Shown here: positions 7,645 through 58,155 of the stretch, in pieces | Numbering within the stretch: the stretch's first letter is position 1 | Layout: each line of letters opens with the position of its first letter | Source of the DNA: Tardiphaga sp. 709 | Lineage (GTDB): Bacteria > Pseudomonadota > Alphaproteobacteria > Rhizobiales > Xanthobacteraceae | Length of the DNA: 64,000 bases | Assembly (NCBI RefSeq): GCF_032401055.1 | Contig: NZ_CP135529.1 | Coordinates: forward strand, 6,136,501-6,200,500 | Reading direction: 5' to 3' | The notes under the pieces: generated by a model | Told to the model about the DNA's origin: nothing | The model's input: only the letters and a program-made list of their open reading frames with translations | Database searches by the model: none | Position numbers and translations under genes: made by a program

Positions 7645-8238
7645 CCTAAACATTTTTTCCTATTTCCCGTTGACAATATCCCTTTCTTGATTATATTCCC
7701 CCTCGTCCTGCCCCACCGAGAGGGGCGATCGCGATCGTCACGTTCGCGGGGTGGGATGCGGTGGACGCCGGAGATGCGGCGTTACGCGGTTTGGGGGTGA
7801 CGTCTGTCGTCGGGCAGGACGGATCTGCGCCAGCACTGCCACTGGCAAGGAGACGGCCGACCTTGGGATGGAAAGACCCCCTGGACAGTGTGACGGACGA
7901 CCAAGTCAAAACGCGTCCGGCTTACTCGCTTGAGGCTCCCTGTCCCTCCGCCGTGGGACCATCATTTTGGTGATCGGACCGTTCGCCAAGGCAAAGTGCA
8001 AGCAGGCTGAAAAAAACACCGTATGCGGAACGTCGGGCACTTGCTCGGCGCCTCCGAAAGTCCTGATGCACTCACACTTGCGGAAGACCGCATCGCATCA
8101 GGCCCAAGGGTGCAACGGGCACCTGGCGTTCCGCACGCCCTCTCACAGGGGGCAGGGAATGCAAGAGACGACGGCGCCCCCGCGCCGCAAACAATGGGGG
8201 TGATGACGCATGTCTGAAATGGAGTGGCTGCCTGACAG
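7645..8238 (+). repeat. ~590-bp repeated element, copy A (direct)
   Basis: The whole stretch from CCTAAACATTTTTTCCTAT to GGCTGCCTGACA has a second copy in inverted orientation at 57569-58155. By eye roughly nine of ten positions are shared, with several one- to three-base indels that break any common reading frame. Long blocks are identical, for example around GGTGGGATGCGGTGGACGCC and CGCCTCCGAAAGTCCTGATG. Indels out of phase argue that the conserved product is DNA or RNA, not protein. It carries a conserved promoter-like sequence near its 5' end. No transposase frame or clear terminal inverted repeats are seen. From 8239 to 8518 there is nothing recognisable apart from a small hairpin, CTGACA/TGTCAG, at 8232-8253. 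Confidence 0.85.
7670..7697 (+). promoter_or_regulatory. Sigma-70-type promoter inside repeated element A
   Basis: TTGACA at 7670-7675 and TATATT at 7692-7697 are separated by 16 bp. Both hexamers and the spacing are kept in copy B although the spacer differs (CTTTCTTGAT against CTGTATGGAC). This is the pattern expected of a functional promoter. Transcription would run rightward through the element. Confidence 0.6.
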
Positions 8239-8518
8239 TTGAATTCATGTCAGACGTCGCGGCCTGCGCGTAGCGCAAGCCGTTATTGTAGCACCACTCA
8301 GCCCACCGCTTCCGGAAATCCTGACCTCCGCTTTTGTGAGGGCTCACAGGCCGTCACCACGAAGTCGCTACCGCATCAGCAAAAACCGCGGCGATCCCGC
8401 TCCATCCATTCCGCTCTGTGAAATTCACGTCCGCAGCGTGAAATGTTGTCGCTTGCCAAGGCTGCCGTGAAAGGTCACAAAAAACTGAACTGGGACGAAA
8501 CACCAATCGGAGAGACGT

Positions 8519-9667
8519 TTGAGCATCAAGGGCAAGGCATATATCGCCGGCATCTACGAACACCCGACCCGGCATGCGCCGGACAAATCCATTGCGCAGT
8601 TGCATGCCGAGGTCGCCAAGGGCGCGCTCGAGGATGCAGGCCTGACGCATAAGGATGTCGACGGCTATTTCTGCGCAGGCGATGCGCAAGGGGGCCTGTG
8701 GCCGATGGTCGACTATCTCGGCCTCAAGCCGCGTCACGTCGATTCAACCGAGACCGGCGGCTGCTCCTACATCATCCATCTCGGCCATGCCGCGCAGGCG
8801 ATCGCCGCGGGCAAGTGCTCGATCGCACTCGTCACATTGGCCGGCAAGCCGCGCACCGGCGTAATGCCACCGCGTCTGCAGGGCGCCGAAGCCGATTTCG
8901 AGACTGCTTATGGTGCCACCACGCACAATGCCTATGGCATGTGTGCCATGCGTCACATGCACGACTACGGTACGACCAGCGAACAACTCGCCTGGATCAA
9001 GGTCGCGGCCTCGCATCACGCGCAGTACAACCCGCATGCGATGCTCAAGGACGTCGTCACCGTCGAGGACGTGCTGAACTCGCCGATGATCTCCGATCCG
9101 CTGCACCGCATGGATTGCTGCGTCGTCAGTGACGGCGGTGGCGCGATGATCGTCACCACGCCCGAGATCGCCAAGAGCCTGAAGAAGCCGCTGGTGCGCC
9201 TGATCGGCCACGGCGAAGCCATGAAGGGTCCGCGCGGCGGCAAGGATCTCGATCTCACTTACTCCGCCGGTGTGTGGTCCGGTCCGCGCGCCTTTGAGGA
9301 AGCAGGCGTGACCCCACAGGATATGAAATACGCGTCGATCTATGACAGCTTCACCATCACCGTGCTGATGCAGCTTGAAGACTTGGGCTTCTGCAAGAAG
9401 GGCGACGGCGGCAAGTTCGTCTCCGATGGCAACCTGATCTCGGGCGTCGGCAAGCTGCCGTTCAACACCGATGGCGGTGGTCTGTGCAGCAATCATCCCG
9501 TCAATCGCGGCGGCATGACCAAGATTCTCGAAGCCGTGCGCCAGCTGCGCGGCGAAGCCCATCCCAAGGTGCAGGTGCCGAATTGCGATCTGGCGATCGC
9601 CCATGGCACCGGAGGCCTGCTCGGCGTACGTCACGCCGCATCGACCGCTATTCTGGAGCGCGTGTAA
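8519..9667 (+). CDS. Thiolase-family protein (SCP-x / lipid-transfer type)
   Basis: The protein is 382 aa, starting at a TTG codon with GGAGAG four bases upstream. The thiolase fold is seen with the nucleophile Cys82 in ETGGCSYIIH, a C-terminal CSNHPVNRGGM segment and DLAIAHGTGG. The shape is that of SCP-x-like thiolases, which often need a DUF35 partner; such a gene follows with a one-base overlap (TAATG). It likely carries out the thiolytic or retro-aldol step in degradation of a branched or cyclic acyl-CoA. It is followed by MaoC and SDR genes that would supply the preceding hydration and oxidation steps. Confidence 0.85.
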   Translation: MSIKGKAYIAGIYEHPTRHAPDKSIAQLHAEVAKGALEDAGLTHKDVDGYFCAGDAQGGLWPMVDYLGLKPRHVDSTETGGCSYIIHLGHAAQAIAAGKCSIALVTLAGKPRTGVMPPRLQGAEADFETAYGATTHNAYGMCAMRHMHDYGTTSEQLAWIKVAASHHAQYNPHAMLKDVVTVEDVLNSPMISDPLHRMDCCVVSDGGGAMIVTTPEIAKSLKKPLVRLIGHGEAMKGPRGGKDLDLTYSAGVWSGPRAFEEAGVTPQDMKYASIYDSFTITVLMQLEDLGFCKKGDGGKFVSDGNLISGVGKLPFNTDGGGLCSNHPVNRGGMTKILEAVRQLRGEAHPKVQVPNCDLAIAHGTGGLLGVRHAASTAILERV

Positions 9668-10056
9668 TGACTGAAGCCAAGAAGTATCCGACGCCGGCCG
9701 GCAATCCTGAATCGCAGCCGTTCTGGGATGCGGCCAAGGACGGCAAGTTCATGATCAAGCGCTGCACCACCTGCGGCGAAGCGCACTTCTTCCCGCGCGC
9801 GATCTGCCCGTTCTGTTTCTCCGACAAGACCGAATGGGAGCAGAGCTCGGGCGAGGGCGAGATCTACACCTACAGCCACATGCGCAAATCGGCGACCGGT
9901 CCCTACGTGATCGCCTATGTGACGCTGAAGGAAGGCCCCTCGGTGCAGACCAACATCGTCGACTGCGATCCGGGCAGTCTGAAGATCGGCCAGAAGGTGA
10001 AGCTGGTGTGGAAGCCCACCGACGGCGCGCCGCTGCCGTTCTTCACGCCGGCATAA
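9667..10056 (+). CDS. DUF35 OB-fold/zinc-ribbon acyl-CoA-associated protein
   Basis: The protein is 129 aa. An N-terminal helix (QPFWDAAKDGKFMIKRCTTC) leads into a rubredoxin-like zinc ribbon with CTTCGEAHFFP and CPFC, then an OB fold (GEGEIYTYSHMRKSATGPYV, KIGQKVKLVWKPTDG). DUF35 proteins pair with thiolase-like enzymes, as in the Ltp2-ChsH2 steroid side-chain complex. The ATG overlaps the thiolase stop by one base, which implies translational coupling and a complex with it. All four zinc-ligand cysteines appear present. Confidence 0.88.
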   Translation: MTEAKKYPTPAGNPESQPFWDAAKDGKFMIKRCTTCGEAHFFPRAICPFCFSDKTEWEQSSGEGEIYTYSHMRKSATGPYVIAYVTLKEGPSVQTNIVDCDPGSLKIGQKVKLVWKPTDGAPLPFFTPA

Positions 10057-10072
10057 GCAACGCACACAGGCT

Positions 10073-10178
10073 GTCATCACCCGCGTAAGCGGGTGATCCA
10101 GTAAACGCCGAAAGGCCTGTGTGTACTGGATCGCCCGGTCCTCTAGCGAAGCTCGCTTCGCGCTGCCGGGCGATGACA
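10073..10178. repeat. Intergenic palindromic repeat
   Basis: The hairpin TCACCCGCGTAAGCGGGTGA is followed by a second palindromic pair built on ACTGGATCGCCCGG and CCGGGCGATGA. It fills most of the gap between the DUF35 and MaoC genes. It resembles the mosaic hairpin repeats of rhizobial genomes and could stabilise or attenuate the upstream mRNA. No further copy was noticed in this window. Confidence 0.6.
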
Positions 10179-10222
10179 GTGAGAGAGAAACAGCAACAAA
10201 CAAGAAAATCGGGAGCGACCGA

Positions 10223-11083
10223 ATGCCCATCAACTACGAAGCCCTGATGGCGATGAAGAACATCGGCCAGAAATATGCCTGGACCGATCGCGAAGTGATG
10301 CTCTACGCCTATGGCATCGGCATGGGCGCCGATCCGATGGACGAGCGTGAACTCGCTTTCGTCAACGAGGGCACCTATACGCCGCGTCCGCTGAAAGTCG
10401 TGCCGACCTATGCATCGGTTGCCGCATGGGGCTCGGGCCCGGGCGAGATGGGTCTCAACAAGCTGCTGGTGGTCGATGGCGAGCGCGACATCACCTTTCA
10501 CAAGCCGCTGCCGGTGGCTGCGAAGATCACCGCGGACTCAAGCGTGCTTGGCGTGTTCGACAAGGGCGCCGACAAGGGCGCCGTAATCCTGCATCAGACC
10601 ATCCTGCGCGATGAAGCCGGGGAGGCGCTGGCGACTCTCGTGGCGTCGCGTTTCGCCCGCGGCGATGGCGGCTTCGGCGGCAAGTCCGAAGGCCAGCCCG
10701 AGCCGCATGCGATGCCGAAGCGCGCGCCGGACAAGACCGTCGACATCACGACGCGGCCCGACCAGGCGCTGATCTATCGCCTGTGCGGCGACCGCAACCC
10801 GCTGCATAGCGATCCCGAATTCGCCAAGCGCGCCGGCTTCCCGCGTCCGATCCTGCACGGCATGTGCACCTACGGCATCACCTGCCGCGGCGTGCTGCAG
10901 ACCTATGCCGACTACGATCCATCCGCCTTCAAGCAGCATGCGGTGCGCTTCTCGTCGCCGGTGTTTCCGGGCGAGACTGTCAGCATGGATTTGTGGAAGG
11001 ACGGCAACGTCGTGTCGTTCGAGGCCAAGGTGAAGGAACGCGGCGTCACCGTGATCAAGAGCGGCAAGACGGTGCTGGCGTAA
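10223..11083 (+). CDS. MaoC-type 2-enoyl-CoA hydratase (double hotdog)
   Basis: The protein is 286 aa from MPINYEALMAMKN. It has an N-terminal degenerate hotdog (about residues 1-130) and a C-terminal catalytic hotdog with the hydratase-2 motif CGDRNPLHSDPEFAKRAGF, giving catalytic Asp190 and His195, followed by PILHGMCTYG. This is the architecture of the hydratase-2 part of peroxisomal MFE-2. It would hydrate trans-2-enoyl-CoA to (R)-3-hydroxyacyl-CoA, which the downstream SDR could oxidise. An in-frame upstream start at 10121 runs through the repeat and is rejected. Confidence 0.9.
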   Translation: MPINYEALMAMKNIGQKYAWTDREVMLYAYGIGMGADPMDERELAFVNEGTYTPRPLKVVPTYASVAAWGSGPGEMGLNKLLVVDGERDITFHKPLPVAAKITADSSVLGVFDKGADKGAVILHQTILRDEAGEALATLVASRFARGDGGFGGKSEGQPEPHAMPKRAPDKTVDITTRPDQALIYRLCGDRNPLHSDPEFAKRAGFPRPILHGMCTYGITCRGVLQTYADYDPSAFKQHAVRFSSPVFPGETVSMDLWKDGNVVSFEAKVKERGVTVIKSGKTVLA

Positions 11084-11099
11084 ACTCAGTCCTCTCGAC

Positions 11100-11180
11100 G
11101 TCATGCCCGGCCTTGTGCCGGGCATCCACGTCTTGGTCAAAACGTAAGGCGTGGATGGCCGGTTCAAGCCCGGCCATGAC
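11100..11180. repeat. Double-hairpin repeat (GTCATGCCCGGC family), copy 1
   Basis: The outer arms are GTCATGCCCGGC and GGCCATGAC, with inner pairs GCCGGGCATCCACG / CGTGGATGGCCGG. The same element occurs in the opposite orientation at 13157-13238, so the two copies bracket the SDR and DapA-family genes. It lies between the MaoC and SDR genes and may act on mRNA stability. Confidence 0.85.
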
Positions 11181-11226
11181 GGAGCAAAACAAAAAACCAA
11201 AATCGTAAAAATGCAGGGAGCGTGCC

Positions 11227-12105
11227 ATGGGTCTTCTCGACGGTAAGGTTGCCATCATCACAGGCGCCGGTGGCGGCCTCGGTGAAGCCTACGCCAAACT
11301 GTTCGCACGCGAGGGTGCATCCGTCGTGGTCAACGATCTCGGCGGCCCACGCGATGGCTCCGGTTCCGATCTCTCCATGGCGCAGCAGGTCGTCGACGCC
11401 ATCAAGAAAGAGGGCGGCAAGGCCGCCGCCAACGGCGCCGACATCTCGACCATATCAGGCGGCCAATCGGTGTTCGACGATGCCATCAAGGCCTTCGGCA
11501 AGGTCGATATCCTCGTCAACAATGCCGGCATCCTGCTCGACCAGACCTTCGCCAAGGCGTCCGAGGCGGCGTGGGACAAGGTGATGCAGGTGCATCTCAA
11601 AGGCACGTTCTGCGTCACCCAGCCGGCCTTCAAGTGGATGAAGGAAAACGGCGGCGGCGTCATCGTCAACACGTCCTCGACCTCCGGCCTGATCGGCAAT
11701 TTCGGCCAGAGCAATTACGGCGCGGCCAAGGGTGGCATCTGGGGCCTGTCCAACGTACTGGCCATCGAGGGGCGCAAATACAATATCCGCGTGTGGACGC
11801 TGGCGCCGGGCGCGCTGACCCGTATGACGGCGGACCTGCCGCGCTACATCGAAAATCCCGGTGCGGCGCTCGGCCCGGACGGTATCGCGCCGGCGGTGCT
11901 CTACATGGTCAGCGATCTATCCGGCAACCAAACGGGGAAGGTACTCGGCGTGTCCGGCCCGCGCGGCGTCCGCGAGATGAAGATGATGGAAAAAGAAGGC
12001 TGGAAGCCGCCCCATGACGGCTGGAGCGCGCAGGACGTGGTGACCCATGCTGGCGAGATCTTCTTCTCGGACGAGGCAAGCCAGCACGGGGCACGGCGTT
12101 TTTGA
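11227..12105 (+). CDS. SDR-family 3-hydroxyacyl-CoA dehydrogenase (MFE-2 type)
   Basis: The protein is 292 aa. The Rossmann signature TGAGGGLGEAYAKLFAREGA is followed by VVVNDLGGPRDG, an acidic/Gly patch characteristic of the MFE-2/17beta-HSD4 dehydrogenase family. Catalytic Tyr164 and Lys168 lie in SNYGAAKGGIWG, with upstream NTSSTSG serines. A C-terminal extension of ~50 residues follows the core. It probably oxidises (R)-3-hydroxyacyl-CoA made by the preceding MaoC hydratase, using NAD+. It is separated from that gene only by a hairpin repeat. Confidence 0.85.
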   Translation: MGLLDGKVAIITGAGGGLGEAYAKLFAREGASVVVNDLGGPRDGSGSDLSMAQQVVDAIKKEGGKAAANGADISTISGGQSVFDDAIKAFGKVDILVNNAGILLDQTFAKASEAAWDKVMQVHLKGTFCVTQPAFKWMKENGGGVIVNTSSTSGLIGNFGQSNYGAAKGGIWGLSNVLAIEGRKYNIRVWTLAPGALTRMTADLPRYIENPGAALGPDGIAPAVLYMVSDLSGNQTGKVLGVSGPRGVREMKMMEKEGWKPPHDGWSAQDVVTHAGEIFFSDEASQHGARRF

Positions 12106-12181
12106 GGGGCATCTAGGCCCGGTTCGGGCGGACAGACCGGATATTTCCCGGTACAATGCCGGCATCCATTCACAGAGGCCC

Positions 12182-13141
12182 ATGATGAAACTGACCGCCA
12201 AAGCCGCCGGCACCTTCGCCATCGCACCGACCCCGTTCCTCGACGACGGCCGCATCGACGACAAATCGATCGACGGCCTGACGGATTTCTACGCCCAGGT
12301 CGGCTGCAACGGTGTGACCGTGCTTGGCATCATGGGCGAGGCGCCGAAGCTGGAGGGGGCTGAGTCCGAGGCCGTGGCCACCCGCTTCATCAAGCGCGCC
12401 AGCGACAAGATGCAGATCATCGTCGGCGTTTCCGCCCCCGGTTTTGCCGCCATGCGTTCGCTGGCGCTGAAGTCGATGGATGCCGGCGCTGCCGGCGTCA
12501 TGATCGCCCCGCCGCCGCATCTGCGCACCGATGACCAGATCACCAACTATTTCAAGCAGGCGGTGGACGCTATCGGCGACGACGTCCCGTGGGTACTGCA
12601 GGACTATCCGCTGACCCTCACCGTGGTGATGACACCTGCGGTGATCCGCAAGATCATCATGGACTCCAAGTCCTGCGTGATGCTGAAGCACGAGGACTGG
12701 CCGGGCCTGGAGAAGATCACCGCGCTGCGTAACTTCCAGAAGGACGGCAGCTTGCGCGAGACCTCGATCCTCACCGGCAATGGCGGTGTGTTCCTGGAGT
12801 TCGAAATGGAACGCGGCGCTGATGGCGCGATGACGGGTTATGCCTTCCCTGAGCTGCTGATCGACGTCGTCAATCTCTCGAAGAAGGGCGAGCGCGACAA
12901 GGCGCACGATCTGTTCGATGCTCATCTGCCGCTGATCCGCTACGAGCAGCAGCTCGGCATCGGTCTCGCGGTCCGCAAATATGTGCTGCAGAAGCGCGGC
13001 GTTATTGCATCAAGCGCGCAGCGCAAGCCGGGTGTGGCGATCACGGCGCAGGCGAAGGCGGAGGTCGATTATCTCCTCTCGCGCGTCGCGCGCTACGACA
13101 AGCGCGCGAACATCGCACCGCAGTCGAGTGCTGCGGGTTAA
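12182..13141 (+). CDS. DapA-family aldolase/lyase
   Basis: The protein is 319 aa from the ATG at 12182, preceded by AGAGG. It is a TIM barrel of the dihydrodipicolinate synthase/N-acetylneuraminate lyase family: GTFAIAPTPFLDDGRIDD, GVTVLGIMGEAPKL (in place of GTTGE) and the tyrosine loop VLQDYPLTL. The Schiff-base lysine is Lys169 in CVMLKHEDWPG. The altered substrate loop argues against true DapA; the substrate is unknown, plausibly a 2-oxo acid. It shares strand with the acyl-CoA genes but is set apart by its own 5' gap. Confidence 0.85.
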   Translation: MMKLTAKAAGTFAIAPTPFLDDGRIDDKSIDGLTDFYAQVGCNGVTVLGIMGEAPKLEGAESEAVATRFIKRASDKMQIIVGVSAPGFAAMRSLALKSMDAGAAGVMIAPPPHLRTDDQITNYFKQAVDAIGDDVPWVLQDYPLTLTVVMTPAVIRKIIMDSKSCVMLKHEDWPGLEKITALRNFQKDGSLRETSILTGNGGVFLEFEMERGADGAMTGYAFPELLIDVVNLSKKGERDKAHDLFDAHLPLIRYEQQLGIGLAVRKYVLQKRGVIASSAQRKPGVAITAQAKAEVDYLLSRVARYDKRANIAPQSSAAG

Positions 13142-13156
13142 TAACTCCCCAGAAGT

Positions 13157-13238
13157 GTCATGGCCGGGCTTGACCCGGCCATCCATCTTCAGGGTTGCCA
13201 AGTAAAAGATGGATGCCCGGATCAAGTCCGGGCATGAC
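13157..13238. repeat. Double-hairpin repeat (GTCATGCCCGGC family), copy 2 (inverted)
   Basis: This stretch runs from GTCATGGCCGGGCTTGACCC to GTCCGGGCATGAC. Its reverse complement matches the element at 11100-11180, arm for arm, with a diverged centre. It sits between the DapA-family gene and the Nudix gene. Confidence 0.85.
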
Positions 13239-13302
13239 AAACGAGAGGTCGGCAATCGCCGGCACAACAGGCATCAAAGAATGCCGATCAGGGAGAAACT
13301 GA

Positions 13303-14103
13303 ATGCCAAGCGAGCCCGGCGTTGTGCGACCTGCTTCCACCATCCTCCTGCTGCGCAAGGGTGCAACCGACGCCATCGACGTCTTCATGATGGTGCGGCA
13401 CTATCAGATCGAATTCGCATCCGGTGCGCTGGTGTTTCCAGGCGGCAGCGTCGATGCCGGCGATCGCGAGATCGGCACACGGCCCGAACTCTATAGCGGC
13501 GGCCGGGGCCTCGATCCCGATGCGCTGGCTTTCAAGATCGCCGCGATCCGCGAGACCTTCGAGGAAAGCCGCATCCTGCTGGCACGGCCGCGCGGATCGA
13601 AAGACCTGATCGCCGCGACGAAGGCGAGCGCTATCGCCGATCAGTATCGCGATGCGCTGAACGAGGGCAAGGTCAAATTCGCCGATATCATCGCCGAGAA
13701 CGATCTGGAGCTCGCGCTCGATCTGCTGGTGCCCTACGCACACTGGATTACGCCGGAAGGCATGAAGAAGCGCTTCGACACCTGGTTCTTCCTCGCCGAA
13801 GCGCCGCCCGAACAGGTCGGCATGCATGACGGCAAGGAATCCACGGATTCGATCTGGCTGTCGCCGCGCGAAGCGTTGGACGGCGGCGCATCGGGCCGTT
13901 TCACGCTGCCGTTCCCGACCACGCGCAATCTCATCAAACTCGGCAAGCAGCCCAGCGTCGCAGGCGCAATCGACGACGCCAACCGCAGCACGATCGTCAG
14001 CGTGACGCCCATCGTCACGCGCGATGGCGACAAGCGCCAGTTGCGGATTCCGATGGAGGCCGGCTATGACGGCGAGGTGTTCGAACTCACCGGCGCGCCA
14101 TAG
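13303..14103 (+). CDS. Nudix hydrolase, NUDT19-like (CoA/acyl-CoA diphosphatase candidate)
   Basis: The protein is 266 aa. The start is preceded by AGGGAG. The Nudix region is split as in NUDT19/RP2 proteins: GALVFPGGSVDAGDREIG, then an insert, then FKIAAIRETFEESRILLA, which supplies the REUXEE metal ligands. Eukaryotic NUDT19 hydrolyses CoA and acyl-CoA, which would fit the surrounding acyl-CoA genes; the substrate here is inferred. It is convergent with the acyl-CoA ligase gene. Confidence 0.85.
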   Translation: MPSEPGVVRPASTILLLRKGATDAIDVFMMVRHYQIEFASGALVFPGGSVDAGDREIGTRPELYSGGRGLDPDALAFKIAAIRETFEESRILLARPRGSKDLIAATKASAIADQYRDALNEGKVKFADIIAENDLELALDLLVPYAHWITPEGMKKRFDTWFFLAEAPPEQVGMHDGKESTDSIWLSPREALDGGASGRFTLPFPTTRNLIKLGKQPSVAGAIDDANRSTIVSVTPIVTRDGDKRQLRIPMEAGYDGEVFELTGAP

Positions 14104-14112
14104 CGCGCTGGT

Positions 14113-15681
14113 CTATCCCGCCTTGGCTTGCGGCGCCGCTGCGGCATTCTCCCAGAATGGCCGCCGCAACTCGCGCTTCAGCACCTTGCCGGCACCCGAC
14201 AGCGGGAAGGGCTCGCTGCGCACGTCCACGCTGCGTGGGCACTTGTAGCCGGCGATCTTCTCCTTGCAGAAGGCGATGATCTCGGCGGCGTTGACGCTCG
14301 CACCGGGTTTCGGAATGACAAATGCGTGCACGGTCTCGCCCCATTGCGAATCGGGAATGCCGATCACGGCGCATTGCGCCACGGCCGGATGTTGTGCGAC
14401 GACATTCTCGACTTCGGTGGAGTAGACGTTCTCGCCGCCGGAGATGATCATGTCCTTCATCCGATCGACGAGATAGATATAGCCTTCGTCGTCCATGTAG
14501 CCGCCGTCGCCTGTGTGCATCCAGCCGTCGATGACGGCCCTGGCTGTTTCTTCCGGTCGTTCCCAATAGCCCATCATCACGTTCTGGCCGCGCACGGCGA
14601 CTTCGCCGACTTCACCATTCGGCACGGGCTTGCGATTGGCGTCGACGATGCGGGCCTCGCAGCCGATTGCCGCACGGCCGCAAGCGCGTTGACGGTTCTT
14701 CGCCGCAGCTTGCTCGCCAATATGCTGATCCCACGGCAGATGCGTCGCCAGCGGCGACAGTTCGGTCATGCCATAGAGCTGATGGAATTCGGTGCCGGGC
14801 ATGCCGGCCATCGCGCGTTTCAGTAGTGCATCGTTGATCGGCGAGGCGCCATACATCATGATTTTCAATGATGACAGATCGGCGGTCGCGAAAGCGGAGT
14901 GATCGACCAGCATCTGGATCATGGTCGGGACGATCAATGTGACTGACACTTTCTCGCGGGCGATGGTCTGCATCACCAATTCCGGATTGAACATCCGGAC
15001 GATGACATTAGTGCCGCCAGATGCCAGCGAGGTGAACATCACCCCGCCATTGGCGACATGAAACATCGGCGCTGCGTTGAGATAGATCGAACCATGGGGC
15101 AGCAGCCCTTCGCTCATCATATGCAGCGAATTGCTCATGATATTGCCGTGGCTCAGCATTACGCCTTTGGAGCGGCCTGTGGTGCCGCCAGTGTAAAAGA
15201 TACCTGCGAGATCCTCGCGTGTCCGCATCGCATCCAGCACGGGCTCCGTCGATTGGACCAGCTCATCGTAGTTGTGCGCTTCCGCGGGACCTTTTTCGTC
15301 GTCCGCATAGACCAGCGTGAGCGGCATGGCCTTGGCGAGTTCGACGCCCATGGCGGCGAAGACACTGTCGACGACCAACGCGCTGGCGCGGCAGTCGAGC
15401 AGGGATTCGAGAATTTCGGCCTGGCTCCAGCGCACATTGGTCGGCACGATTACGGCGCCGGCCCAGGCGATGCCCAGATAGAGTTCGAGATAGCGGTCGG
15501 AGTTCAGCATCAGCACCGCCACGCGGTCGCCGTGCTTGACGCCAAGCTTTTGCAGCGCACCTGCAAGACGCGCGACGCGGTCTCCAACCTCGCGCCATGT
15601 CCGGCGGCGATCGCCGTCGATGGTGGCTATTGTCTGCGGGCTGGTTTGCAGCGCACGGCGCAGGCCTTGCGTGATGTTCAT
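14113..15681 (-). CDS. Acyl-CoA synthetase (AMP-forming)
   Basis: The protein is 522 aa from MNITQGLRRALQTSPQ; the frame extends 12 codons upstream without a better site. ANL-superfamily motifs are in order: the P-loop-like FYTGGTTGRSKGVMLSHGN, LYGMTELSPLATHLP, GWMHTGDGGYMDDEGY, and the A10 lysine region GKVLKRELRRPFW. It activates a carboxylic acid to acyl-adenylate and then acyl-CoA. It probably feeds the beta-oxidation genes in this region. It is divergent from the PQQ dehydrogenase with a 243-bp gap. Confidence 0.9.
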   Translation of the reverse strand: MNITQGLRRALQTSPQTIATIDGDRRRTWREVGDRVARLAGALQKLGVKHGDRVAVLMLNSDRYLELYLGIAWAGAVIVPTNVRWSQAEILESLLDCRASALVVDSVFAAMGVELAKAMPLTLVYADDEKGPAEAHNYDELVQSTEPVLDAMRTREDLAGIFYTGGTTGRSKGVMLSHGNIMSNSLHMMSEGLLPHGSIYLNAAPMFHVANGGVMFTSLASGGTNVIVRMFNPELVMQTIAREKVSVTLIVPTMIQMLVDHSAFATADLSSLKIMMYGASPINDALLKRAMAGMPGTEFHQLYGMTELSPLATHLPWDQHIGEQAAAKNRQRACGRAAIGCEARIVDANRKPVPNGEVGEVAVRGQNVMMGYWERPEETARAVIDGWMHTGDGGYMDDEGYIYLVDRMKDMIISGGENVYSTEVENVVAQHPAVAQCAVIGIPDSQWGETVHAFVIPKPGASVNAAEIIAFCKEKIAGYKCPRSVDVRSEPFPLSGAGKVLKRELRRPFWENAAAAPQAKAG

Positions 15682-50174: not shown

Positions 50175-50279
50175 TTTGTCGCGCTTTGCATGGCTGCAGC
50201 GCACAATTTCGCTTGGCGTCAGGGTGTGCGCTGTGGAATCTGCGCCCGCAACGCAACTGGATTTGAGGACTGAGACTGA

Positions 50280-50741
50280 ATGAGCGCGATGATTGAACGT
50301 GATGCCTATATCGCCATGGTGGGCAAGGAAGTCGGCGTGTCGCCCTGGCATGTCATGGACCAGAAGCGCATCGATGCGTTCGCCGCGGCGACGGAGGATT
50401 TTCAGTTTATCCATGTCGATTCCGCGCGTGCCCGCGAAACGCCGTTCGGCTCGACCATTGCACATGGCTTTCTGACCATGTCGATGCTCTCGGTGTTCTC
50501 CTATGAGGCTCTGCCGCAACTCGCCGACGTCGCCATGGGTGTGAACTACGGCACCGACAAAGTGCGTTTCGTGTCGCCGGTTAAAGCCGGTACGCGCATT
50601 CGCGGCCGCTTCACGCTGACCGAAGCGACGTTGCGCAAGCCCAAGGAATTGTTCACGCGCACCAGCGTGAGTGTCGAGATCGAAGGCGAGGACAAGCCGG
50701 CGCTGGTCGCCGACTGGCTCGGCCTTGTCTATTTCAATTGA
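50280..50741 (+). CDS. MaoC-family dehydratase (single hotdog)
   Basis: The protein is 153 aa. The hotdog motif has Asp40 and His45 in AAATEDFQFIHVDSARARET, followed by STIAHGFLTMSMLSVFSYE. It is NodN/MaoC-like, hydrating 2-enoyl-CoA to 3-hydroxyacyl-CoA. It precedes the SDR gene by 12 bp and follows the acyl-CoA synthetase, giving activation, hydration and oxidation steps in order. Confidence 0.9.
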   Translation: MSAMIERDAYIAMVGKEVGVSPWHVMDQKRIDAFAAATEDFQFIHVDSARARETPFGSTIAHGFLTMSMLSVFSYEALPQLADVAMGVNYGTDKVRFVSPVKAGTRIRGRFTLTEATLRKPKELFTRTSVSVEIEGEDKPALVADWLGLVYFN

Positions 50742-50753
50742 GGAGAGTTCCAA

Positions 50754-51671: not shown

Positions 51672-51692
51672 CCGGCGGCTTCGCCAGATCGT

Positions 51693-52931
51693 GTGACCGT
51701 GACTAAGCCTGTGAAGAACCAAGTTGCGGTCATCGGCGCAGGTCCTGCTGGGCTGATGGCGGCCGACGTCCTGAGCCGTGGCGGCGCTGCCGTTACGGTC
51801 TATGACGCGATGCCGTCGGCAGGCCGCAAGTTCCTGATGGCCGGACGCGGCGGGCTCAATCTCACTCATAGTGAGCCGCTGCCTCAATTTCTCAAGCGCT
51901 ATGGTGCCGCGGAAGCGCGGCTCGCGCCATCGATCTCGGCTTTCACGCCGACCGCTTTACGGGGCTGGAGCGAGGCGCTCGGGCAGCCGACATTCGTCGG
52001 CTCCAGCGGCCGGGTGTTTCCGCAGGCCTTCAAGGCATCGCCATTGCTGCGCGCGTGGCTGCGGCGACTGGACGAGAGTGGCGTTCAATTCGCGTTTCGG
52101 CATCGGTGGACCGGATGGGACGGCGAGGGACGTTTGATATTCCAAACGCCGGACGGCTCGCAGACGGTCGCCTGCAAGAGCGCGATTCTTGCGCTGGGCG
52201 GTGCAAGCTGGCCGCGGCTTGGCTCGGACGGTGCGTGGGTCGATGTGCTCGCGGCGAAGGGCGTGAGTATCGCGCCGCTGCGTCCGGCGAATTCCGGCTT
52301 TACGGTTGCGTGGTCGGAGATCTTCAAGGACCGTTTCGAAGGTCAGCCGCTGAAGGGCGCCGCGCTGTCGTTCGGCGTGCACACGGTGCGCGGCGAGGCA
52401 ATGGTGACGCGCACTGGCATTGAAGGTGGCGGCATCTATGCGCTGTCGTCTCTGTTGCGTGAGGCTGTCATCGCGGACGGCAAGGCTACGCTGCGCGTTG
52501 CTCTGCGACCTGATCTCGACGCGGGTGAACTGACGACGAAGCTGGCCGCTTCGCGCGGCAAGCAGTCGTTCTCCAATTTCCTGCGCAAGGCGATCCATCT
52601 GTCGCCGGTGGCGATTGGGCTGCTGCAGGAAGTCACTGTCGCCGAGGGGCTTCAACTGGCGTCGTTGTCGCCGGAGAAGCTGGCCTCCTTGATCAATGCC
52701 GTGCCGGTCACGCTCAGCGGCGTCGCGCCGATCGGACGCGCGATTTCGACGGCGGGTGGCGTCTCGTTCGATGAGATCGACGACGCCTTCATGCTGAAGC
52801 GCATGCCGGGCACTTTCGTCGCCGGCGAAATGCTCGACTGGGAAGCGCCGACCGGCGGCTATCTGCTGCAAGCCTCGTTTGCAACAGGCGCTGCGGCCGG
52901 TGAGGGCGCGCTGCGTTTTCTCGCGCGCTAG
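51693..52931 (+). CDS. HI0933-like flavoprotein (TIGR03862 family)
   Basis: The protein is 412 aa with a GTG start. An FAD-binding Rossmann motif, VAVIGAGPAGLMAADVLSRG, is followed by AGRKFLMAGRGGLNLTHSEP, the hallmark of the HI0933/BaiN family, and a C-terminal FVAGEMLDWEAPTGGYLLQA. These are flavin-dependent oxidoreductases with poorly known substrates. The stop overlaps the end of the convergent aldolase-like gene by four bases. Confidence 0.88.
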   Translation: MTVTKPVKNQVAVIGAGPAGLMAADVLSRGGAAVTVYDAMPSAGRKFLMAGRGGLNLTHSEPLPQFLKRYGAAEARLAPSISAFTPTALRGWSEALGQPTFVGSSGRVFPQAFKASPLLRAWLRRLDESGVQFAFRHRWTGWDGEGRLIFQTPDGSQTVACKSAILALGGASWPRLGSDGAWVDVLAAKGVSIAPLRPANSGFTVAWSEIFKDRFEGQPLKGAALSFGVHTVRGEAMVTRTGIEGGGIYALSSLLREAVIADGKATLRVALRPDLDAGELTTKLAASRGKQSFSNFLRKAIHLSPVAIGLLQEVTVAEGLQLASLSPEKLASLINAVPVTLSGVAPIGRAISTAGGVSFDEIDDAFMLKRMPGTFVAGEMLDWEAPTGGYLLQASFATGAAAGEGALRFLAR

Positions 52932-54007
52932 CGCAACCGACCACGCGCGGCCACCGGGAGCGTGCCGATAATCTCGTCACCGCGCACCATCACCACTTCA
53001 TCGAACATGTTGACGACCACGCAGACATGGTTCGGCACGATGCGGACGACGTCGCCGACGTTGGGGCGGGTGTTGCTGCGGCCGAGATCGAGGAAGCCAT
53101 GCTCCTCGGCGAAGCGCGCGATCTTGGCTTCGGGATGTTCGAGGATCAGGCCGTAGCCATCGAGGCCGCCGGTGTCGGGCGTCAGCGTCTTGGAGCCGGC
53201 ATCGAGAATGCCGCGTTCCGGGCCGGCGCGGCTGACCACGGTCGAATAGACGTTGAGCGCGCAATCGTCCCAGGTCGCGGAGCCGGCGGCCACCTGCATG
53301 CGGTCGTTGTAGATGTAAGTGCCGAAGCGATGTTCGGTGGCGCCCTTGAGCGAGCCGACATTCTTCAGGTTCGGCGTGCCGCCGGTGGAGACGATGCTCG
53401 GCTCGAGGCCGAGTGCGCGGACGCCGGCCAGTGCTTCGTCATAGAATTTCTGTGCGTCGGGCCAGCCGGTTTCGGTCGGATATAGCATAAAGCCCGCGAA
53501 GGTCAGGCCCTTCGAGGCGGCGATCTCCTTGGCCAGTGCAATCGCCTCCGCCGGCGTCTCGACGCCGGCGCGCTTGCGGCCGGTGTCGCATTCGACAACG
53601 ACGTTGAGGTTGCGACCCGAAATCGCGGCGGCTTTCGGCAGATCTCCGATGACGACGGAATTGTCGGCGGCCACGGTGACGTTTGCCTTCGCCTGCAGGG
53701 CGCCGAGCCGCGCCATCTTCTCGTCGCCGAGCAGGTTGTAGCTGATCAGGATGTCGTCGATCCCTGCATCGGCCATGATCTCGGCCTCGCCGAGCTTCTG
53801 GCAGGTGATGCCTTTGGCGCCGGCCTCGATCTGCATCTTCGCGATCACCGGGCTCTTATGCGTCTTGATATGCGGCCGGTTGGCGATGCCGGCATCATCG
53901 CAGACCTTCTGGATACGCGCGATGTTGCGCTCGACGCGGTCCATGTCGATGACGAGGGCAGGCGTGCCGTATTCGTTGGCGATCTTGGTTGCAAGCGATG
54001 TGGTCAT
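52928..54007 (-). CDS. D-threonine aldolase-like PLP enzyme
   Basis: The protein is 359 aa from MTTSLATKIANEYGTPALVI. It has an alanine-racemase-type TIM barrel with the PLP lysine in NRPHIKTHKSPVIAKM (about residue 48) and the C-terminal metal site region RIVPNHVCVVVNMFDEV, where His and Cys bind a divalent metal. This pattern fits D-threonine aldolase, 3-hydroxyaspartate aldolase or D-serine dehydratase; the exact reaction cannot be settled. An ABC-F gene lies upstream on the same strand. Confidence 0.85.
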   Translation of the reverse strand: MTTSLATKIANEYGTPALVIDMDRVERNIARIQKVCDDAGIANRPHIKTHKSPVIAKMQIEAGAKGITCQKLGEAEIMADAGIDDILISYNLLGDEKMARLGALQAKANVTVAADNSVVIGDLPKAAAISGRNLNVVVECDTGRKRAGVETPAEAIALAKEIAASKGLTFAGFMLYPTETGWPDAQKFYDEALAGVRALGLEPSIVSTGGTPNLKNVGSLKGATEHRFGTYIYNDRMQVAAGSATWDDCALNVYSTVVSRAGPERGILDAGSKTLTPDTGGLDGYGLILEHPEAKIARFAEEHGFLDLGRSNTRPNVGDVVRIVPNHVCVVVNMFDEVVMVRGDEIIGTLPVAARGRLR

Positions 54008-54069
54008 GTCGTTAGTCTCCTGCGCGTGTTCTGATCGCAAAACCGGTACCCACTTTTACGGAACACGCG

Positions 54070-55881
54070 CTACGCGTTCTCGATCTCTTCGCGGAGCATT
54101 TCCAGCTCCAGCCATTGCTCTTCCGAATCCTGCAATTCCTTCTGTGCCTTTGACAGCGCAGCGGTGGCCGTATCGAACTTCTTGCGATCCTTCTTGTAGA
54201 GATTGGGATCGTCGAGATGGCGCTGCTGCTTGGCGATTTCGGAGCGCAGGTTGTCCATCGTCTTCGGCAGGGTGTCCAGCGCGTGCTTGTCCTTGAAGTT
54301 CAGCTTGCGCTTGCCGGCGGGCTTGGACGAGTCCGACTTGCTGCCGTTGCTTTTGGCAGCCACGGCTTCGGTCTTCGCCTCGCGCTTCAGGTCGGCGCCG
54401 CGCTGCGCCAGCATGTCGGTATAGCCGCCGGCATATTCCATCCACTTGCCGTTGCCTTCCGGCACGATCACTGACGTCACGACGCGATCGAGAAAGTCAC
54501 GGTCATGGCTGATCAGGATCACGGTGCCCTCGTAGTCGCCGAGCATTTCCTCGAGCACGTCGAGGGTTTCGAGATCGAGGTCGTTGGTCGGTTCGTCCAG
54601 CACCAGCACATTGGATGGTTTCGCCAGCGCCCGCGCCAGCATCAATCGGCCGCGCTCACCGCCGGACAACACTTCGAGCGGCGTGCGCATCTGCTCCTGC
54701 GAGAACAGGAAGTCCTTCATGTAGCTGACCACATGCTTGGGCTGGCCGTTGACCATCACATGGTCGCCGCGGCCGCCGGTGAGGGCCTCCGCCAGCGTGG
54801 TCTTCGGGTTGAGGCTTTCGCGATGCTGGTCCAGCGTCGCCATTTCGATATTGGCGCCGAACCGGATGGTGCCGGAATCCGGCGGCTCGGTGCCGGTCAG
54901 CATGTTGATCATCGTGGTCTTGCCCGCACCGTTCGGACCGACCACACCAATGCGATCGCCACGCTGCACACGGATCGAGAAGTCGTCGACGATCTTGCGG
55001 TCACCGTAAGTGCGGCAGATGTTCTTCGCTTCGAAGATCAGCTTGCCGGACTTCTCGGCTTCGGCCGCAGCGAGCGTCGCGTTGCCCGCGGCGCCGCGAT
55101 AGTCCTGGCGCTGTGCGCGCAGTTCATGCAGGCCGGCGAGGCGCTTGACGTTGCGCTTGCGGCGGCCGGAGACGCCGTGGCGCAGCCAATGTTCTTCATT
55201 GACGATCTTGCGGTCGAGCTTGTGCTGGTCGCGCTCTTCTTCCGCCAGCACGTCGTCGCGCCACTGTTCGAAGGCCGAGAAGCCGCGATCAATCTGGCGG
55301 ATCTGGCCGCGATCGAGCCAGGCGGTGGCACGTGAGAGGTTGCTGAGAAAGCGGCGGTCATGGCTGATCAACACCAGCGCGCAGCGGCGGCTGGCGAGTT
55401 CGCCTTCGAGCCATTCGATCGTCGTCAGATCGAGATGGTTGGTCGGCTCGTCGAGCAGCAGGATATCCGGCTCGGGCGCCAGCACGCGGGCCAGCGCCGT
55501 GCGGCGCGCTTCACCGCCGGAGAGATTGTTCGGATCCTCGTGGCCGGTGAGGCCGAGCTGTTCGAGCAGATATTGCGCCTGATAGATGTTGTGGCCGTCG
55601 CCCATGCCGGCTTCGACATAAGCGAGCGTCGTCGCATAGCCGGAGAAGTCCGGCTCCTGCGGCAGATACTGCACGGTGGCGCCGGGCTGCACGAAGCGGC
55701 TGCCTTTGTCGTTTTCGACGATCCCCGCCACGATTTTGAGGAGCGTCGACTTGCCGGAGCCGTTGCGGCCGATCAGACAGACGCGCTCGCCCTGCGACAC
55801 CGAGAGTTCGACGCCGTTGAGCAGCGGCGTGCCGCCGAAGGTCAGGAAGATGTCTTTCAGCTGGATAAGCGGAGGAGCCAT
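54070..55881 (-). CDS. uup: ABC-F family ATPase (Uup-like)
   Basis: The protein is 603 aa. Two ABC cassettes without membrane segments: Walker A GRNGSGKSTLLKIV and GPNGAGKTTMINML, signatures LSGGEARRTALARVL and LSGGERGRLMLARAL, and Walker B ILLLDEPTNHLD and VLVLDEPTNDLD. The C-terminal ~90 residues form a Lys/Glu-rich coiled coil, as in Uup. ABC-F proteins act on the ribosome or nucleic acid. The gene name is assigned by architecture only. Confidence 0.92.
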   Translation of the reverse strand: MAPPLIQLKDIFLTFGGTPLLNGVELSVSQGERVCLIGRNGSGKSTLLKIVAGIVENDKGSRFVQPGATVQYLPQEPDFSGYATTLAYVEAGMGDGHNIYQAQYLLEQLGLTGHEDPNNLSGGEARRTALARVLAPEPDILLLDEPTNHLDLTTIEWLEGELASRRCALVLISHDRRFLSNLSRATAWLDRGQIRQIDRGFSAFEQWRDDVLAEEERDQHKLDRKIVNEEHWLRHGVSGRRKRNVKRLAGLHELRAQRQDYRGAAGNATLAAAEAEKSGKLIFEAKNICRTYGDRKIVDDFSIRVQRGDRIGVVGPNGAGKTTMINMLTGTEPPDSGTIRFGANIEMATLDQHRESLNPKTTLAEALTGGRGDHVMVNGQPKHVVSYMKDFLFSQEQMRTPLEVLSGGERGRLMLARALAKPSNVLVLDEPTNDLDLETLDVLEEMLGDYEGTVILISHDRDFLDRVVTSVIVPEGNGKWMEYAGGYTDMLAQRGADLKREAKTEAVAAKSNGSKSDSSKPAGKRKLNFKDKHALDTLPKTMDNLRSEIAKQQRHLDDPNLYKKDRKKFDTATAALSKAQKELQDSEEQWLELEMLREEIENA

Positions 55882-55890
55882 AAGGTCAGT

Positions 55891-56373
55891 TCAACTTTGT
55901 TTCGGCGCGGGCGCAAAGGCCGGGTCGCGCTGGATGCGGCGGATGGTTTGATCCAAGGCCGACAGGAACGCCGAGCGATCGCGCGGCGCGAATGATTTGG
56001 GACCACCGGTGATTTCGCCCGAAGACCGCAAATCGGTCATCAGGTTGCGTACCGCGAGCGTCATCCCGATGGATTGTTCTGTGAACGGCTTGCCGTTAGG
56101 GGCAATTACCGCGGCGCCCGCCTTGACGCAGCGGCTGGCCAGCGGAATGTCCGCCGTAATCACGATATCGCCCTTCCGGGCGCGTTCCGCAATCCAGTCA
56201 TCGGCCGCATCCATGCCCGAACCTGCGGCAATCCGCTCGATCAGGGGATCGTCAGGCACCCGGATGAAGTTTCCGGCGACCACGCTGACGGGCAGGCTGA
56301 AGCGGGCGGCGACGCGGTAAATCTCGTCTTTGACCGGGCAGGCGTCGGCGTCGATATAGATGCGTGTGGTCAA
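55891..56373 (-). CDS. YaiI/YqxD family protein (DUF188)
   Basis: The protein is 160 aa. [20 protein letters not shown] and [20 protein letters not shown] are the signature acidic clusters of the family, arranged like a PIN-type nuclease site. No activity is established. It is directly upstream of the ABC-F gene on the same strand, nine bases apart. Confidence 0.92.
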
Positions 56374-56531
56374 GGGAGCACAAGTTCCACGAAAAGGCAG
56401 TCATTTGCGGGTGGGCGATGTGGCGCTGACGCGGGACAGTTCCCCGCCCGTCGCCTTGCCTCGAACATGGTGACGGGTATCATCTCCTGCCAAGGCGAAC
56501 ACTCAATTTCGCGCAGTTTTCGGGAGGAATC

Positions 56532-57332
56532 ATGACCAAACGGCTCGAACCGTACCGTGTTGAGGCCTTTAACACGGCCAAACAGTCCGAAAACAAGATG
56601 CATGACGATTCTGTCGCCCGGAAATTCGGTTTCAGCGGCGGATTGGTGCCTGGCGTCGACGTGCTGGCCTATATGATCCATCCGCCGGTGCAGCACTGGG
56701 GACGGGACTTTCTGGAGCGTGGTCTGATCGAGGCCCGTTTCACCAAGCCGGTCTATGACGGCGAGACAGTCGAGGTGGTCGCCGAGGAAGCCGGCGAGGG
56801 GCTCGCGCTGAGCGTTGAGGGCGGCGGCGAGATTCGTGCGGCCGGGACCGCATCGCTGACTCAGCGGCCGATGGTGCCGGCGCTGGACGATTTCCCGGAC
56901 ACGGCGGCTGTGTCGAAGCGGCTGCCGGTGGATGCCAATTCCTACGCGCTGGACAAGTGGCTCGGGACCGCGCCGCGGGTCTGGCCGGAGGATGGACTTG
57001 CCGAATATCTGGGTGAGGTTCGCGAGGCCGACGATCGGTATCTGCGCGAGGGCATCGTGCATCCCGGCGTGCTGCAGCGGATCATGAACAAGGTGCTGGT
57101 GGACAATGCGCTGCTCGGGCCGTGGATTCACGTCGGCAGCAGGATGCAGTTGCTCGCGACCGCGAATACCGATGACGAGTTGATCGCGCGGGCGAAGGTG
57201 ACCGCCAATTACGAGAAGAAAGGGCATCGCTTTGTCGAGCTCGATGCGCTCATCGTGGCCAATGGCACGACGCCCATAGCGCACTGCCAGCATATCGCGA
57301 TCACTCAGCCGCGCGAGGTCGTGGCGGCGTGA
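56532..57332 (+). CDS. Hotdog-fold MaoC-like protein
   Basis: The protein is 266 aa, preceded by GGGAGGA. VARKFGFSGGLVPGVDVLAY and a second similar segment from about residue 130 suggest a double hotdog. The D-x4-H catalytic pair of hydratase 2 is not evident (KMHDDSVARKFGF is the nearest match), so enzymatic activity is uncertain. It could bind an acyl-CoA or thioester. Confidence 0.7.
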   Translation: MTKRLEPYRVEAFNTAKQSENKMHDDSVARKFGFSGGLVPGVDVLAYMIHPPVQHWGRDFLERGLIEARFTKPVYDGETVEVVAEEAGEGLALSVEGGGEIRAAGTASLTQRPMVPALDDFPDTAAVSKRLPVDANSYALDKWLGTAPRVWPEDGLAEYLGEVREADDRYLREGIVHPGVLQRIMNKVLVDNALLGPWIHVGSRMQLLATANTDDELIARAKVTANYEKKGHRFVELDALIVANGTTPIAHCQHIAITQPREVVAA

Positions 57333-57360
57333 TGTTGTAGAGCAGCGGCGCTCTTCCTTT

Positions 57361-57540
57361 TCCCTCCTCCGCGCTTGCGTGGGGAGGGTGGCCGGCCGTT
57401 AGGCCGGTCGGGTGGGGGTGGTGCCACACACGTCAAGCTCGCGGAGATACCCCACCCCGGCCTCCACTTCGTCGATGCTTCGCATCGCCTCGCTCGGCCG
57501 ACCCTCCCCACTGCGCTTCGCTTGGGGGAGGGATATTTCT
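57361..57540. repeat. GC-rich palindromic repeat cluster
   Basis: Segments such as CGCTTGCGTGGGGAGGGTGG, GGCCGGCCGTTAGGCCGG and CCTCCCCACTGCGCTTCGCT are mutually complementary and form nested hairpins. This is a common type of intergenic repeat in Bradyrhizobium-like genomes, often downstream of genes. It separates the hotdog gene from element copy B. No protein is supported here. Confidence 0.65.
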
Positions 57541-57568
57541 GGCGCCTGCGCGCCATCGTAGATGTGAA

Positions 57569-58155
57569 TGTCAAACAGCCACTGCTCTTCAGACATGCGT
57601 CATCACCCCCATTGTTTGCGGCGCGGGGGCGCCGTCGTCTCTTGCATTCCCGCCCCCTTGTGAGAGGGCGTGCGGAACGCCGGGTGCCCGTTGCACCCTT
57701 GGGCCTGATGCGAATGCGGTCTTCCGCAAGTGAGTGCATCAGGACTTTCGGAGGCGCCGAGCGAGTGCCCGACGTTCCGCATGCGGTGTTTTTTCGGTTG
57801 CTTGCACTTTGCCTCAGCGAACGATCCGATCACCGAATTAAAGTCCCAAGGCGATGGGAAGGGAGCCTCAAGCGAGTAAGCCGAACGCGTTTCGATTTGG
57901 TCGTCCGTCACACTGTCCAGGATTCTTTCCATCCGAAGGTCGGCCGTCTCCTTGCCAGTGGCAGTGCTGGCGCAGATCCGTCCTGCCCGAAGACAGACGT
58001 CACCCATGAACCGCGTAACGCCGCATCTCCGGCGTCCACCGCATCCCACCCCGCGAACGTGACGATCGCGATCGCCCCTCTCGGTGGGGCAGGACGGAGG
58101 GGAATATAGTCCATACAGGGATATTGTCAACGAGATATAGGAAAAAATGTTTAGG
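57569..58155 (-). repeat. ~590-bp repeated element, copy B (inverted)
   Basis: The reverse complement matches 7645-8238 from CCTAAACATTTTTTCCTAT through the segment ending ...GTCTGAAGAGCAGTGGCTG. Differences are point changes and small indels, for example ACACTTGC against ACTTGC and ATCGCATC against ATTCGCATC. Long frames on both strands here are products of GC bias and are not shared between the copies. Like copy A, it is preceded on its 5' side by the CATTCCGGGGCGC hairpin repeat. Confidence 0.85.
58103..58130 (-). promoter_or_regulatory. Sigma-70-type promoter inside repeated element B
   Basis: On the minus strand TTGACA (58125-58130) and TATATT (58103-58108) are 16 bp apart, identical in hexamers and spacing to copy A. 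Confidence 0.6.

What the first reader, a model, noticed from the sequence alone, without database searches (positions are those of the whole stretch)
7645..58155. Inverted pair of ~590-bp elements bracketing about 49 kb
7645-8238 and the reverse complement of 57569-58155 align end to end with long identical blocks, yet with indels that break any shared reading frame. No transposase, integrase or group II intron reverse transcriptase frame lies inside either copy. Conservation without a protein suggests a non-autonomous mobile element or a structured RNA. Two inverted copies could also recombine and flip the 49-kb segment.
Basis: seen in the sequence. Interest (0 to 1): 0.75.

Follow-up and report, generated by a model that had tools for sequence, protein, structure and literature searches.

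The report
Multi-copy structured RNA genes in Tardiphaga
The two inverted 590-base copies belong to a family of 28 similar stretches scattered over this soil bacterium's chromosome that look like genes for a folded, non-protein-coding RNA, each with its own strong start signal; no reference library searched here knows this RNA and its job is unknown.

Summary
7645-8238 (+) and 57569-58155 (-) are 92% identical members of a 28-copy family in a Tardiphaga or close relative. All 28 start just after a near-consensus sigma70-type promoter. They do not code: 154 of 154 indel runs break frame and variable sites ignore codon position. Two domains keep their folds across the family; in the 3' domain 75 cells carry two-sided compensatory changes against 20 in shuffles. 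Both domains also occur together in two genomes of other families of the order, one 5' match each. Many copies keep their place between species, yet same-place copies are no more alike than randomly chosen ones, as expected of exchange between copies. 22 of 28 end in a near-exact copy of the rRNA leader's boxA-like string. Rfam 15 has no match. The 49-kb block is not flipped in Tardiphaga sp. P9-11, but another inverted pair has swapped flanks there, as an inversion would. Best reading: a dispersed family of structured RNA genes with rRNA-like control signals; expression and function untested.

The parts
7645..8238 (+).
7670..7697 (+). sigma70-type promoter, TTGACA - 16 - TATATT, preceded by an A/T-rich tract from about 7647
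   Evidence: 1 mismatch of 12; 28 of 28 copies at 2 mismatches or fewer, against 1 of 2000 random window 52-mers
7704..7770 (+). conserved 5' domain (model R2)
8019..8143 (+). conserved 3' domain (model R1), closed by the stem GCGGAACG/CGTTCCGC
8226..8237 (+). degenerate boxA-like string (2 mismatches to GGCTGTTTGACA)
7496..7622 (+). REP-like palindrome GTCATTCCGGGG...CCCCGGAATGAC just upstream; such an end lies within 150 bases upstream of 24 of 28 copies (not L013, L020, L023, L027 by that pattern)
   Evidence: a neighbour, not part of the RNA
57569..58155 (-). RNA gene copy 2 (L012)
58103..58130 (-). sigma70-type promoter, TTGACA - 16 - TATATT
58030..58096 (-). conserved 5' domain (in the alignment of model R2)
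57663..57786 (-). conserved 3' domain (R1)
57569..57580 (-). boxA-like string GGCTGTTTGACA, exact; the same 12 bases stand about 246 bases before the only 16S gene found
58177..58313 (-). REP-like palindrome upstream of copy 2
7106..7468 (+). gene upstream of copy 1: DUF1489 protein
8519..9667 (+). gene downstream of copy 1: thiolase domain protein
56532..57332 (+). gene convergent with copy 2: weak MaoC-like match, below Pfam's cut-off
58147..59286 (+). ORF upstream of copy 2, divergent: arylamine N-acetyltransferase domain from residue 126

Best explanation
Each copy is an independent transcription unit whose product is a structured, non-coding RNA of roughly 520-540 bases. SHOWN by sequence: a near-consensus promoter directly before the conserved body in every copy; two conserved helical domains joined by a variable middle; no coding constraint; many copies at the same places in other species while sequence has been exchanged between copies. 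INFERRED: the RNA is made in quantity and folds into a stable particle; the many genes supply dosage; gene conversion between copies mixes them, and as a by-product inverted copies sometimes recombine and invert chromosome segments. INFERRED and weaker: where present, the boxA-like 3' string loads NusB-S10 (as in rRNA leaders), helping the RNA fold or mature, so that the genes follow rRNA-like growth control.
For: 28 copies. Promoter at 2 or fewer of 12 mismatches in 28 of 28 copies (related copies, so not independent); control 1 of 2000 random window places. L023 has different DNA upstream but still a promoter at the same place. 3' domain, 43 sequences: 98.8% of cells paired, 75 two-sided changes against a shuffled mean of 20.1 (0 of 500 reach it), 8 of 22 pairs with double changes against 6.1 (6 of 500); sliding partners leaves 31-56% paired. 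5' domain, 12 distinct sequences: 96.8% paired, 8 double-change cells against 2.6 (0 of 500). Non-coding: variable sites 23/27/24 by codon position, 154 of 154 indel runs frame-breaking. Synteny: both flanks kept for 16 of 28 (G002 = P9-11) and 17 of 28 plus 2 split (G005). Exchange between copies: same-locus copies rank 2nd to 17th of 17 in G002 (11 pairs) and 1st to 20th of 20 in G005 (15 pairs); this genome's paralogs are on average more alike than the ortholog in 11 of 11 and 13 of 15 pairs; mosaic signal, 0 of 500 permutations as low. Wider conservation: 56 of 149 genomes and 21 of 47 genera of the family; both domains in two genomes of other families, one folding at z -6.58. boxA-like string at 1 or fewer mismatches in 22 of 28.
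Against: No expression data were available; promoter and fold are predictions. Own copies fold only modestly better than shuffles (z -2.16 and -2.50). Some covariation measures do not exceed shuffles: further pair types (425 of 500 for the 3' domain, 374 of 500 for the 5'), and pairs with double change in the 5' domain (3 against 1.9, 77 of 500); the structures were derived from the same alignments. Homogenisation within a genome is plain only for this genome against G002 (93.6% within, 83.0% between); G002 within is 84.7% and G005 within is 91.6% against 91.8% to this genome. The boxA-like string is within 2 mismatches in only 20 of 80 relatives' copies (0 of 80 for the reversed string) and in 2 of 37 Bradyrhizobium-type ones, so it is not universal and the Nus step may be wrong; it also stands after the RNA, not before it as in rrn. 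The long-range pairing GCGGUG/CACCGC shows only one-sided G-C to G-U changes, in 62 of 82 loci picked by its 5' string. Some copies are absent at orthologous sites. 11 of 28 bodies have a frame open over more than 95% (65 of 500 mononucleotide shuffles do), though in different frames and strands.
Confidence: 0.8

Rival explanations
1. A slowly moving non-autonomous mobile element (MITE- or SINE-like) that carries its own promoter and is copied in trans, its RNA structure serving transposition.
For: Many similar copies; presence/absence between close species at the L013 and L018 loci; 5 of 28 own copies have no counterpart in the 24 G002 loci compared.
Against: Many copies are at orthologous places; no inverted repeats at the ends of the two window copies; no clean duplication at the two polymorphic sites read; no match in 72,556 plasmid and 50,697 phage records at E 1e-5; two-sided compensatory changes and lone matches in other families fit an old RNA gene better. 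Loss of locus identity at fixed places points to exchange between copies rather than transposition.
Confidence: 0.12
2. A DNA-level element (REP/BIME-like, or a recombination or chromosome-organisation site) whose palindromes look like RNA helices.
For: REP-like palindrome ends lie just upstream of 24 of 28 copies; copies recombine; convergent gaps preferred.
Against: The body begins at the promoter's start point even where upstream DNA differs (L023); helices tolerate G-U, which matters for RNA, not DNA; the REP palindromes lie outside the conserved body and are missing at some copies.
Confidence: 0.05
3. A cis-acting leader (5' UTR, riboswitch or boxA antitermination leader) of the downstream gene.
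For: The order promoter - structured RNA - boxA resembles an rrn leader; copy 1 is followed by a same-strand gene about 280 bases on.
Against: The downstream gene is convergent in 20 of the 27 copies with a called gene (home-made gene caller).
Confidence: 0.03

Closest known systems
Large structured bacterial RNAs OLE, ROOL, GOLLD (passages of PMC12286853)
   Same: Long non-coding RNA with conserved elaborate structure and poorly understood function; ROOL is reported there as abundant as 16S rRNA in at least one strain.
   Different: No Rfam match; chromosomal and dispersed in 28 copies that exchange sequence; ROOL and GOLLD are described there as encoded in prophages and phages.
rRNA operon leader with boxA (Nus factor sites; passages of PMC5725501)
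   Same: Strong sigma70-type promoter, A/T-rich upstream tract, C-rich first bases, and the same GGCTGTTTGACA string as this genome's rrn leader.
   Different: No rRNA follows; the string stands after, not before, the structured RNA; that paper expects only a few regulatory targets in any given species, here 22 of 28 copies carry it.
Mobile/repeat sequence candidates of intergenic RNA surveys (passages of PMC11109978)
   Same: Multiple copies per genome.
   Different: No transposase or integrase found in or at the window copies; places conserved; structure covaries.
REP / palindromic intergenic repeats (recalled kind)
   Same: Intergenic, many copies, often between convergent genes.
   Different: Long promoter-driven body; REP-like palindromes are separate neighbours here.

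Membership tests
Known Rfam 15 family | Match at the family's gathering score | tested here: not met
   Searches (window: only a tRNA; L012, L023, L046, L047 and family-2 loci: only rRNA/tRNA, in L137), at lax E-values: no credible match on the element
Structured non-coding RNA gene (general kind) | Compensatory base changes beyond chance | tested here: met
   (most measures above shuffles; further pair types not)
Structured non-coding RNA gene (general kind) | Own promoter | tested here: met
   by consensus match only
Structured non-coding RNA gene (general kind) | Transcript observed | not testable with these tools
Non-autonomous transposon (MITE) | Terminal inverted repeats | tested here: not met
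   both window copies, repeats of 10 bases or more
Non-autonomous transposon (MITE) | Target site duplications | tested here: inconclusive
   None clean at the two presence/absence sites read; the other copies were not examined for this
Non-autonomous transposon (MITE) | Insertion at new sites between close relatives | tested here: inconclusive
   presence/absence exists, direction (gain or loss) not settled
rRNA-type leader with boxA | boxA string at the rrn leader and in the element | tested here: met
   (22 of 28 at 1 or fewer mismatches); naming it boxA rests on position and on recalled E. coli boxA
rRNA-type leader with boxA | boxA precedes a stable RNA or mRNA whose transcription it affects | tested here: not met
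   The string follows the RNA; downstream gene convergent in 20 of 27
Protein-coding gene | Conserved frame, third-position bias | tested here: not met

The most novel reading that the evidence does not exclude
A dispersed, rRNA-like multigene family of an unknown ribonucleoprotein RNA: dozens of genes exchanging sequence, under rRNA-type promoter control, whose boxA-bearing transcripts bind NusB-S10 and so form a particle that tunes rRNA synthesis or ribosome assembly with growth. A second, distantly similar boxA-ended family with at least 10 matches sits in the same genome and can stand in for the first at the same locus in close relatives, suggesting the two are interchangeable.
Probability: 0.15. 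Interest if true: 0.92.

Novelty: new variant of a known kind. Interest (0 to 1): 0.72.

Why it matters
From general knowledge, few large structured bacterial RNA classes are known, and those are largely phage-borne. A chromosomal family with 28 genes in one genome, present in Tardiphaga relatives and, more diverged, in Bradyrhizobium, would be an unrecognised major RNA of a well-studied group of soil and nodule bacteria. It offers a natural test of gene conversion between dispersed loci, and accounts for some assembly breaks and rearrangements. If the boxA link holds, it ties an unknown RNA to the machinery that makes ribosomes.

Tried and rejected
Protein-coding gene: rejected. Cis-leader of the next gene: rejected by gene orientation. 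Plasmid- or phage-borne element: no match in those collections; a 5'-domain pattern hit 2 IMG/VR stretches with no 3' domain found in them. Flip of the 49-kb block: not seen in P9-11. Published description: ten searches of the held library listed none; the Bradyrhizobium TSS paper PMC4842269 was seen only as abstract and passages, PMC3091675 only as passages; neither passage set names such a family. Most subscription papers and all supplements were out of reach. Bias with replication direction was not tested. A possible 3' pseudoknot was noticed but not tested. A regular-expression error made one search return nothing; one search repeats it. Rows dropped: one search was given 78 of the 82 loci of three genomes (four partial G002 loci left out) and used 64 with a complete body; one search used 24 G002 and 30 (of 40 matches) G005 loci; one search used 80 of the 82 sense matches (two duplicates dropped); alignment A4 (102 matches, 20 antisense) was not used for counts; A5 took 43 of the 80; one search used 62 of 82.
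Full report
WHAT WAS CLAIMED AND WHETHER IT IS THERE. The two stretches are real inverted copies (92% identity). They are two of 28 copies in a 6.36-Mb genome of two contigs; all 28 lie on the large contig. A covariance model of the 3' domain finds the same 28 places (150 of 4867 candidates scored). Contig lengths tie these to G002, G001 and G005.

ANATOMY. In all 28 copies the conserved body starts a few bases after TTGACA-16-TATATT or a close variant (0, 1 or 2 mismatches in 1, 25 and 2 copies; 1 of 2000 random window 52-mers does as well). An A/T-rich tract precedes it and a C-rich stretch follows. The body has a 5' domain of about 67 bases, a variable middle, a 3' domain of about 125 bases and a tail. 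Copy L023 has different DNA upstream yet a promoter at the same spacing, so similarity is anchored at the start of transcription rather than at an element end. Neither window copy has inverted repeats at its ends.

NOT A PROTEIN. Among the 28 bodies, 154 of 154 indel runs against copy L012 are not multiples of three, and variable sites fall 23/27/24 over the three codon positions. In 11 of 28 bodies some frame is open over more than 95%, but on different frames and strands; 65 of 500 shuffled bodies show the same. ORFs overlapping copy 2 have no Pfam or PHROGs match.

STRUCTURE. RNAalifold on 43 sequences gives a long stem closing the 3' domain. 98.8% of 946 cells pair; 75 cells have both sides changed and still pair, against 20.1 in shuffles; sliding partners by 1-3 columns leaves 31-56% paired; the number of further pair types does not exceed shuffles. 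For example, GCGGAACG/CGTTCCGC in Tardiphaga is AGGGAAGG/CCTTCCCT in Bradyrhizobium copies. The 5' domain shows 8 double-change cells against 2.6, on 12 distinct rows; there pairs with double change (3 against 1.9, 77 of 500) and pair types do not stand out. A further long-range pairing, GCGGUG with CACCGC, is compatible at its six positions in at least 59 of 62 loci read but shows only G-C to G-U changes, and a seventh pair holds in 43 of 62. Single-copy folding is only mildly unusual for the window copies (z -2.16, -2.50) and strongly so for the distant L300 (z -6.58).

DISTRIBUTION. By DNA: 24 of 61 genomes, 17 of 18 of the genus counting this one (at most 9 candidates scored per genome). 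By the 3' model: 56 of 149 genomes, 21 of 47 genera of the family (23 scored per genome). By the 5' model: 20 of 397 genomes of the order, 16 of them in the family (13 scored per genome). Genus g49, many of whose genomes reach or approach the cap, is Bradyrhizobium: G421 has a contig of the same length as the named Bradyrhizobium sp. 199 contig, and named Bradyrhizobium loci match the models. Two of the four matching genomes outside the family carry both domains about 200-230 bases apart on one strand, with one 5' match each. I infer an old RNA gene amplified in this family.

EVOLUTION. Flanks show that 16 of 28 copies (one weakly) are in the same place in P9-11, and 17 of 28, plus 2 split over contig ends, in G005 (24 and 30 loci compared). 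Yet same-place copies are not nearest relatives: orthologs rank 2nd to 17th of 17 in G002 (11 pairs) and 1st to 20th of 20 in G005 (15 pairs), close to random (64 of 78 copies used). Paralogs here average 93.6% against 83.0% to G002; but within G002 the mean is 84.7%, and within G005 91.6% against 91.8% to this genome, so strong homogenisation is plain only here. Sites along the body are mosaic. Exchange between copies explains this best. In P9-11 one copy joins the upstream flank of L017 to the downstream flank of L026 and another the reverse; L017 and L026 are inverted in this genome, as expected of an inversion through two copies. The window's own pair keeps all four flanks in P9-11, 49 kb apart. 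Turnover exists: at L018 this genome and G005 have the RNA gene plus REPs and P9-11 has about 52 bases between the matched flanks; at L013 this genome and G005 (the latter cut by a contig end) have family 1, G001 and G010 have a second RNA family in the same gap, and P9-11 has neither.

PLACE. With a simple codon-usage gene caller, the downstream gene is convergent in 20 of 27 copies, and both neighbours point at the copy in 13 of 25, against 8 of 48 neighbouring gene pairs in the window.

THE boxA LINK. The string GGCTGTTTGACA lies about 246 bases before the only 16S gene found. It ends 16 of 28 copies exactly and 22 of 28 with at most one mismatch. Of the 28 genome places within one mismatch of GGCTGTTTGANATT, 21 are in these copies, 3 in the second RNA family and 4 elsewhere. 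That it is boxA is inferred from position and recalled similarity to the E. coli site. It is not universal: 20 of 80 copies, mostly from relatives, within two mismatches, 0 of 80 for the reversed string, and 2 of 37 Bradyrhizobium-type copies. [quoted passage not shown] by analogy I propose that they aid this RNA. This is the weakest step.

MECHANISM AND NOVELTY. I commit to a dispersed multigene family of structured RNA genes with rRNA-like control signals; product abundance, 3' end and partner are unknown. Rfam 15 has nothing and ten literature searches listed no description in the held library. From recall, untested here, ORFs across such repeats may be annotated as hypothetical proteins in Bradyrhizobium genomes, so parts may have been seen without being recognised.

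Noticed in passing
L119, L120, L128 (own genome C1 near 1233496, 1334842, 4912320, - strand): A second multi-copy family with the same layout (promoter, GAGGGGCG...GGGATGCGG 5' motif, boxA-like end); 10 matches here (10 candidates scored), 28 of 61 genomes. The 5' model of family 1 hits its 5' part weakly (E 0.003-1.5) on the right strand in 14 of 22 loci.
   Followed up: partly
L013, L276, L279, L280, L275: One convergent gap holds family 1, family 2 or neither in five close genomes.
   Followed up: yes
window 7106-8519 and L195-L207: After the DUF1489 gene the RNA gene is found in 4 of 80 named loci (three titled Tardiphaga isolates and Bradyrhizobium sp. NFR13; two of the four cut by contig ends); the seven other loci read have different sequence there, so this may be a synteny breakpoint.
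   Followed up: partly
window 7496-7622, 58177-58313: GTCATTCCGGGG-type palindrome ends lie within 150 bases upstream of 24 of 28 copies; other palindromes often lie just downstream.
   Followed up: partly
window 7704-7716 with 7809-7821; 57977-57988 with 58087-58098: In the window copies the first strand of the 5' domain (CGTCCTGCCC) can also pair with GGGCAGGACG about 95 bases on, competing with the conserved helix.
   Followed up: no
tails of L033, L039, L043, L012: Possible H-type pseudoknot GGCGCCCCCGCGCCGCAAACAAYAGGGG; some copies (L025, L027, L028, L036) carry a different tail CTCGGACGC...GCGCCGCGAGA or similar.
   Followed up: no
G005, G001, G010 contig ends: Many draft contigs end inside copies, i.e. 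the family breaks assemblies.
   Followed up: no
L333, L334: Two IMG/VR contigs carry the 5' domain without the 3' domain.
   Followed up: partly
L202 after 2464: Reverse-complement boxA-like string just after the DUF1489 gene in a Tardiphaga MAG, perhaps the end of an inverted copy.
   Followed up: no
L190: Rfam matches below gathering score (RF02625 43 bits, RF01766 39.8 bits) beside a copy.
   Followed up: no
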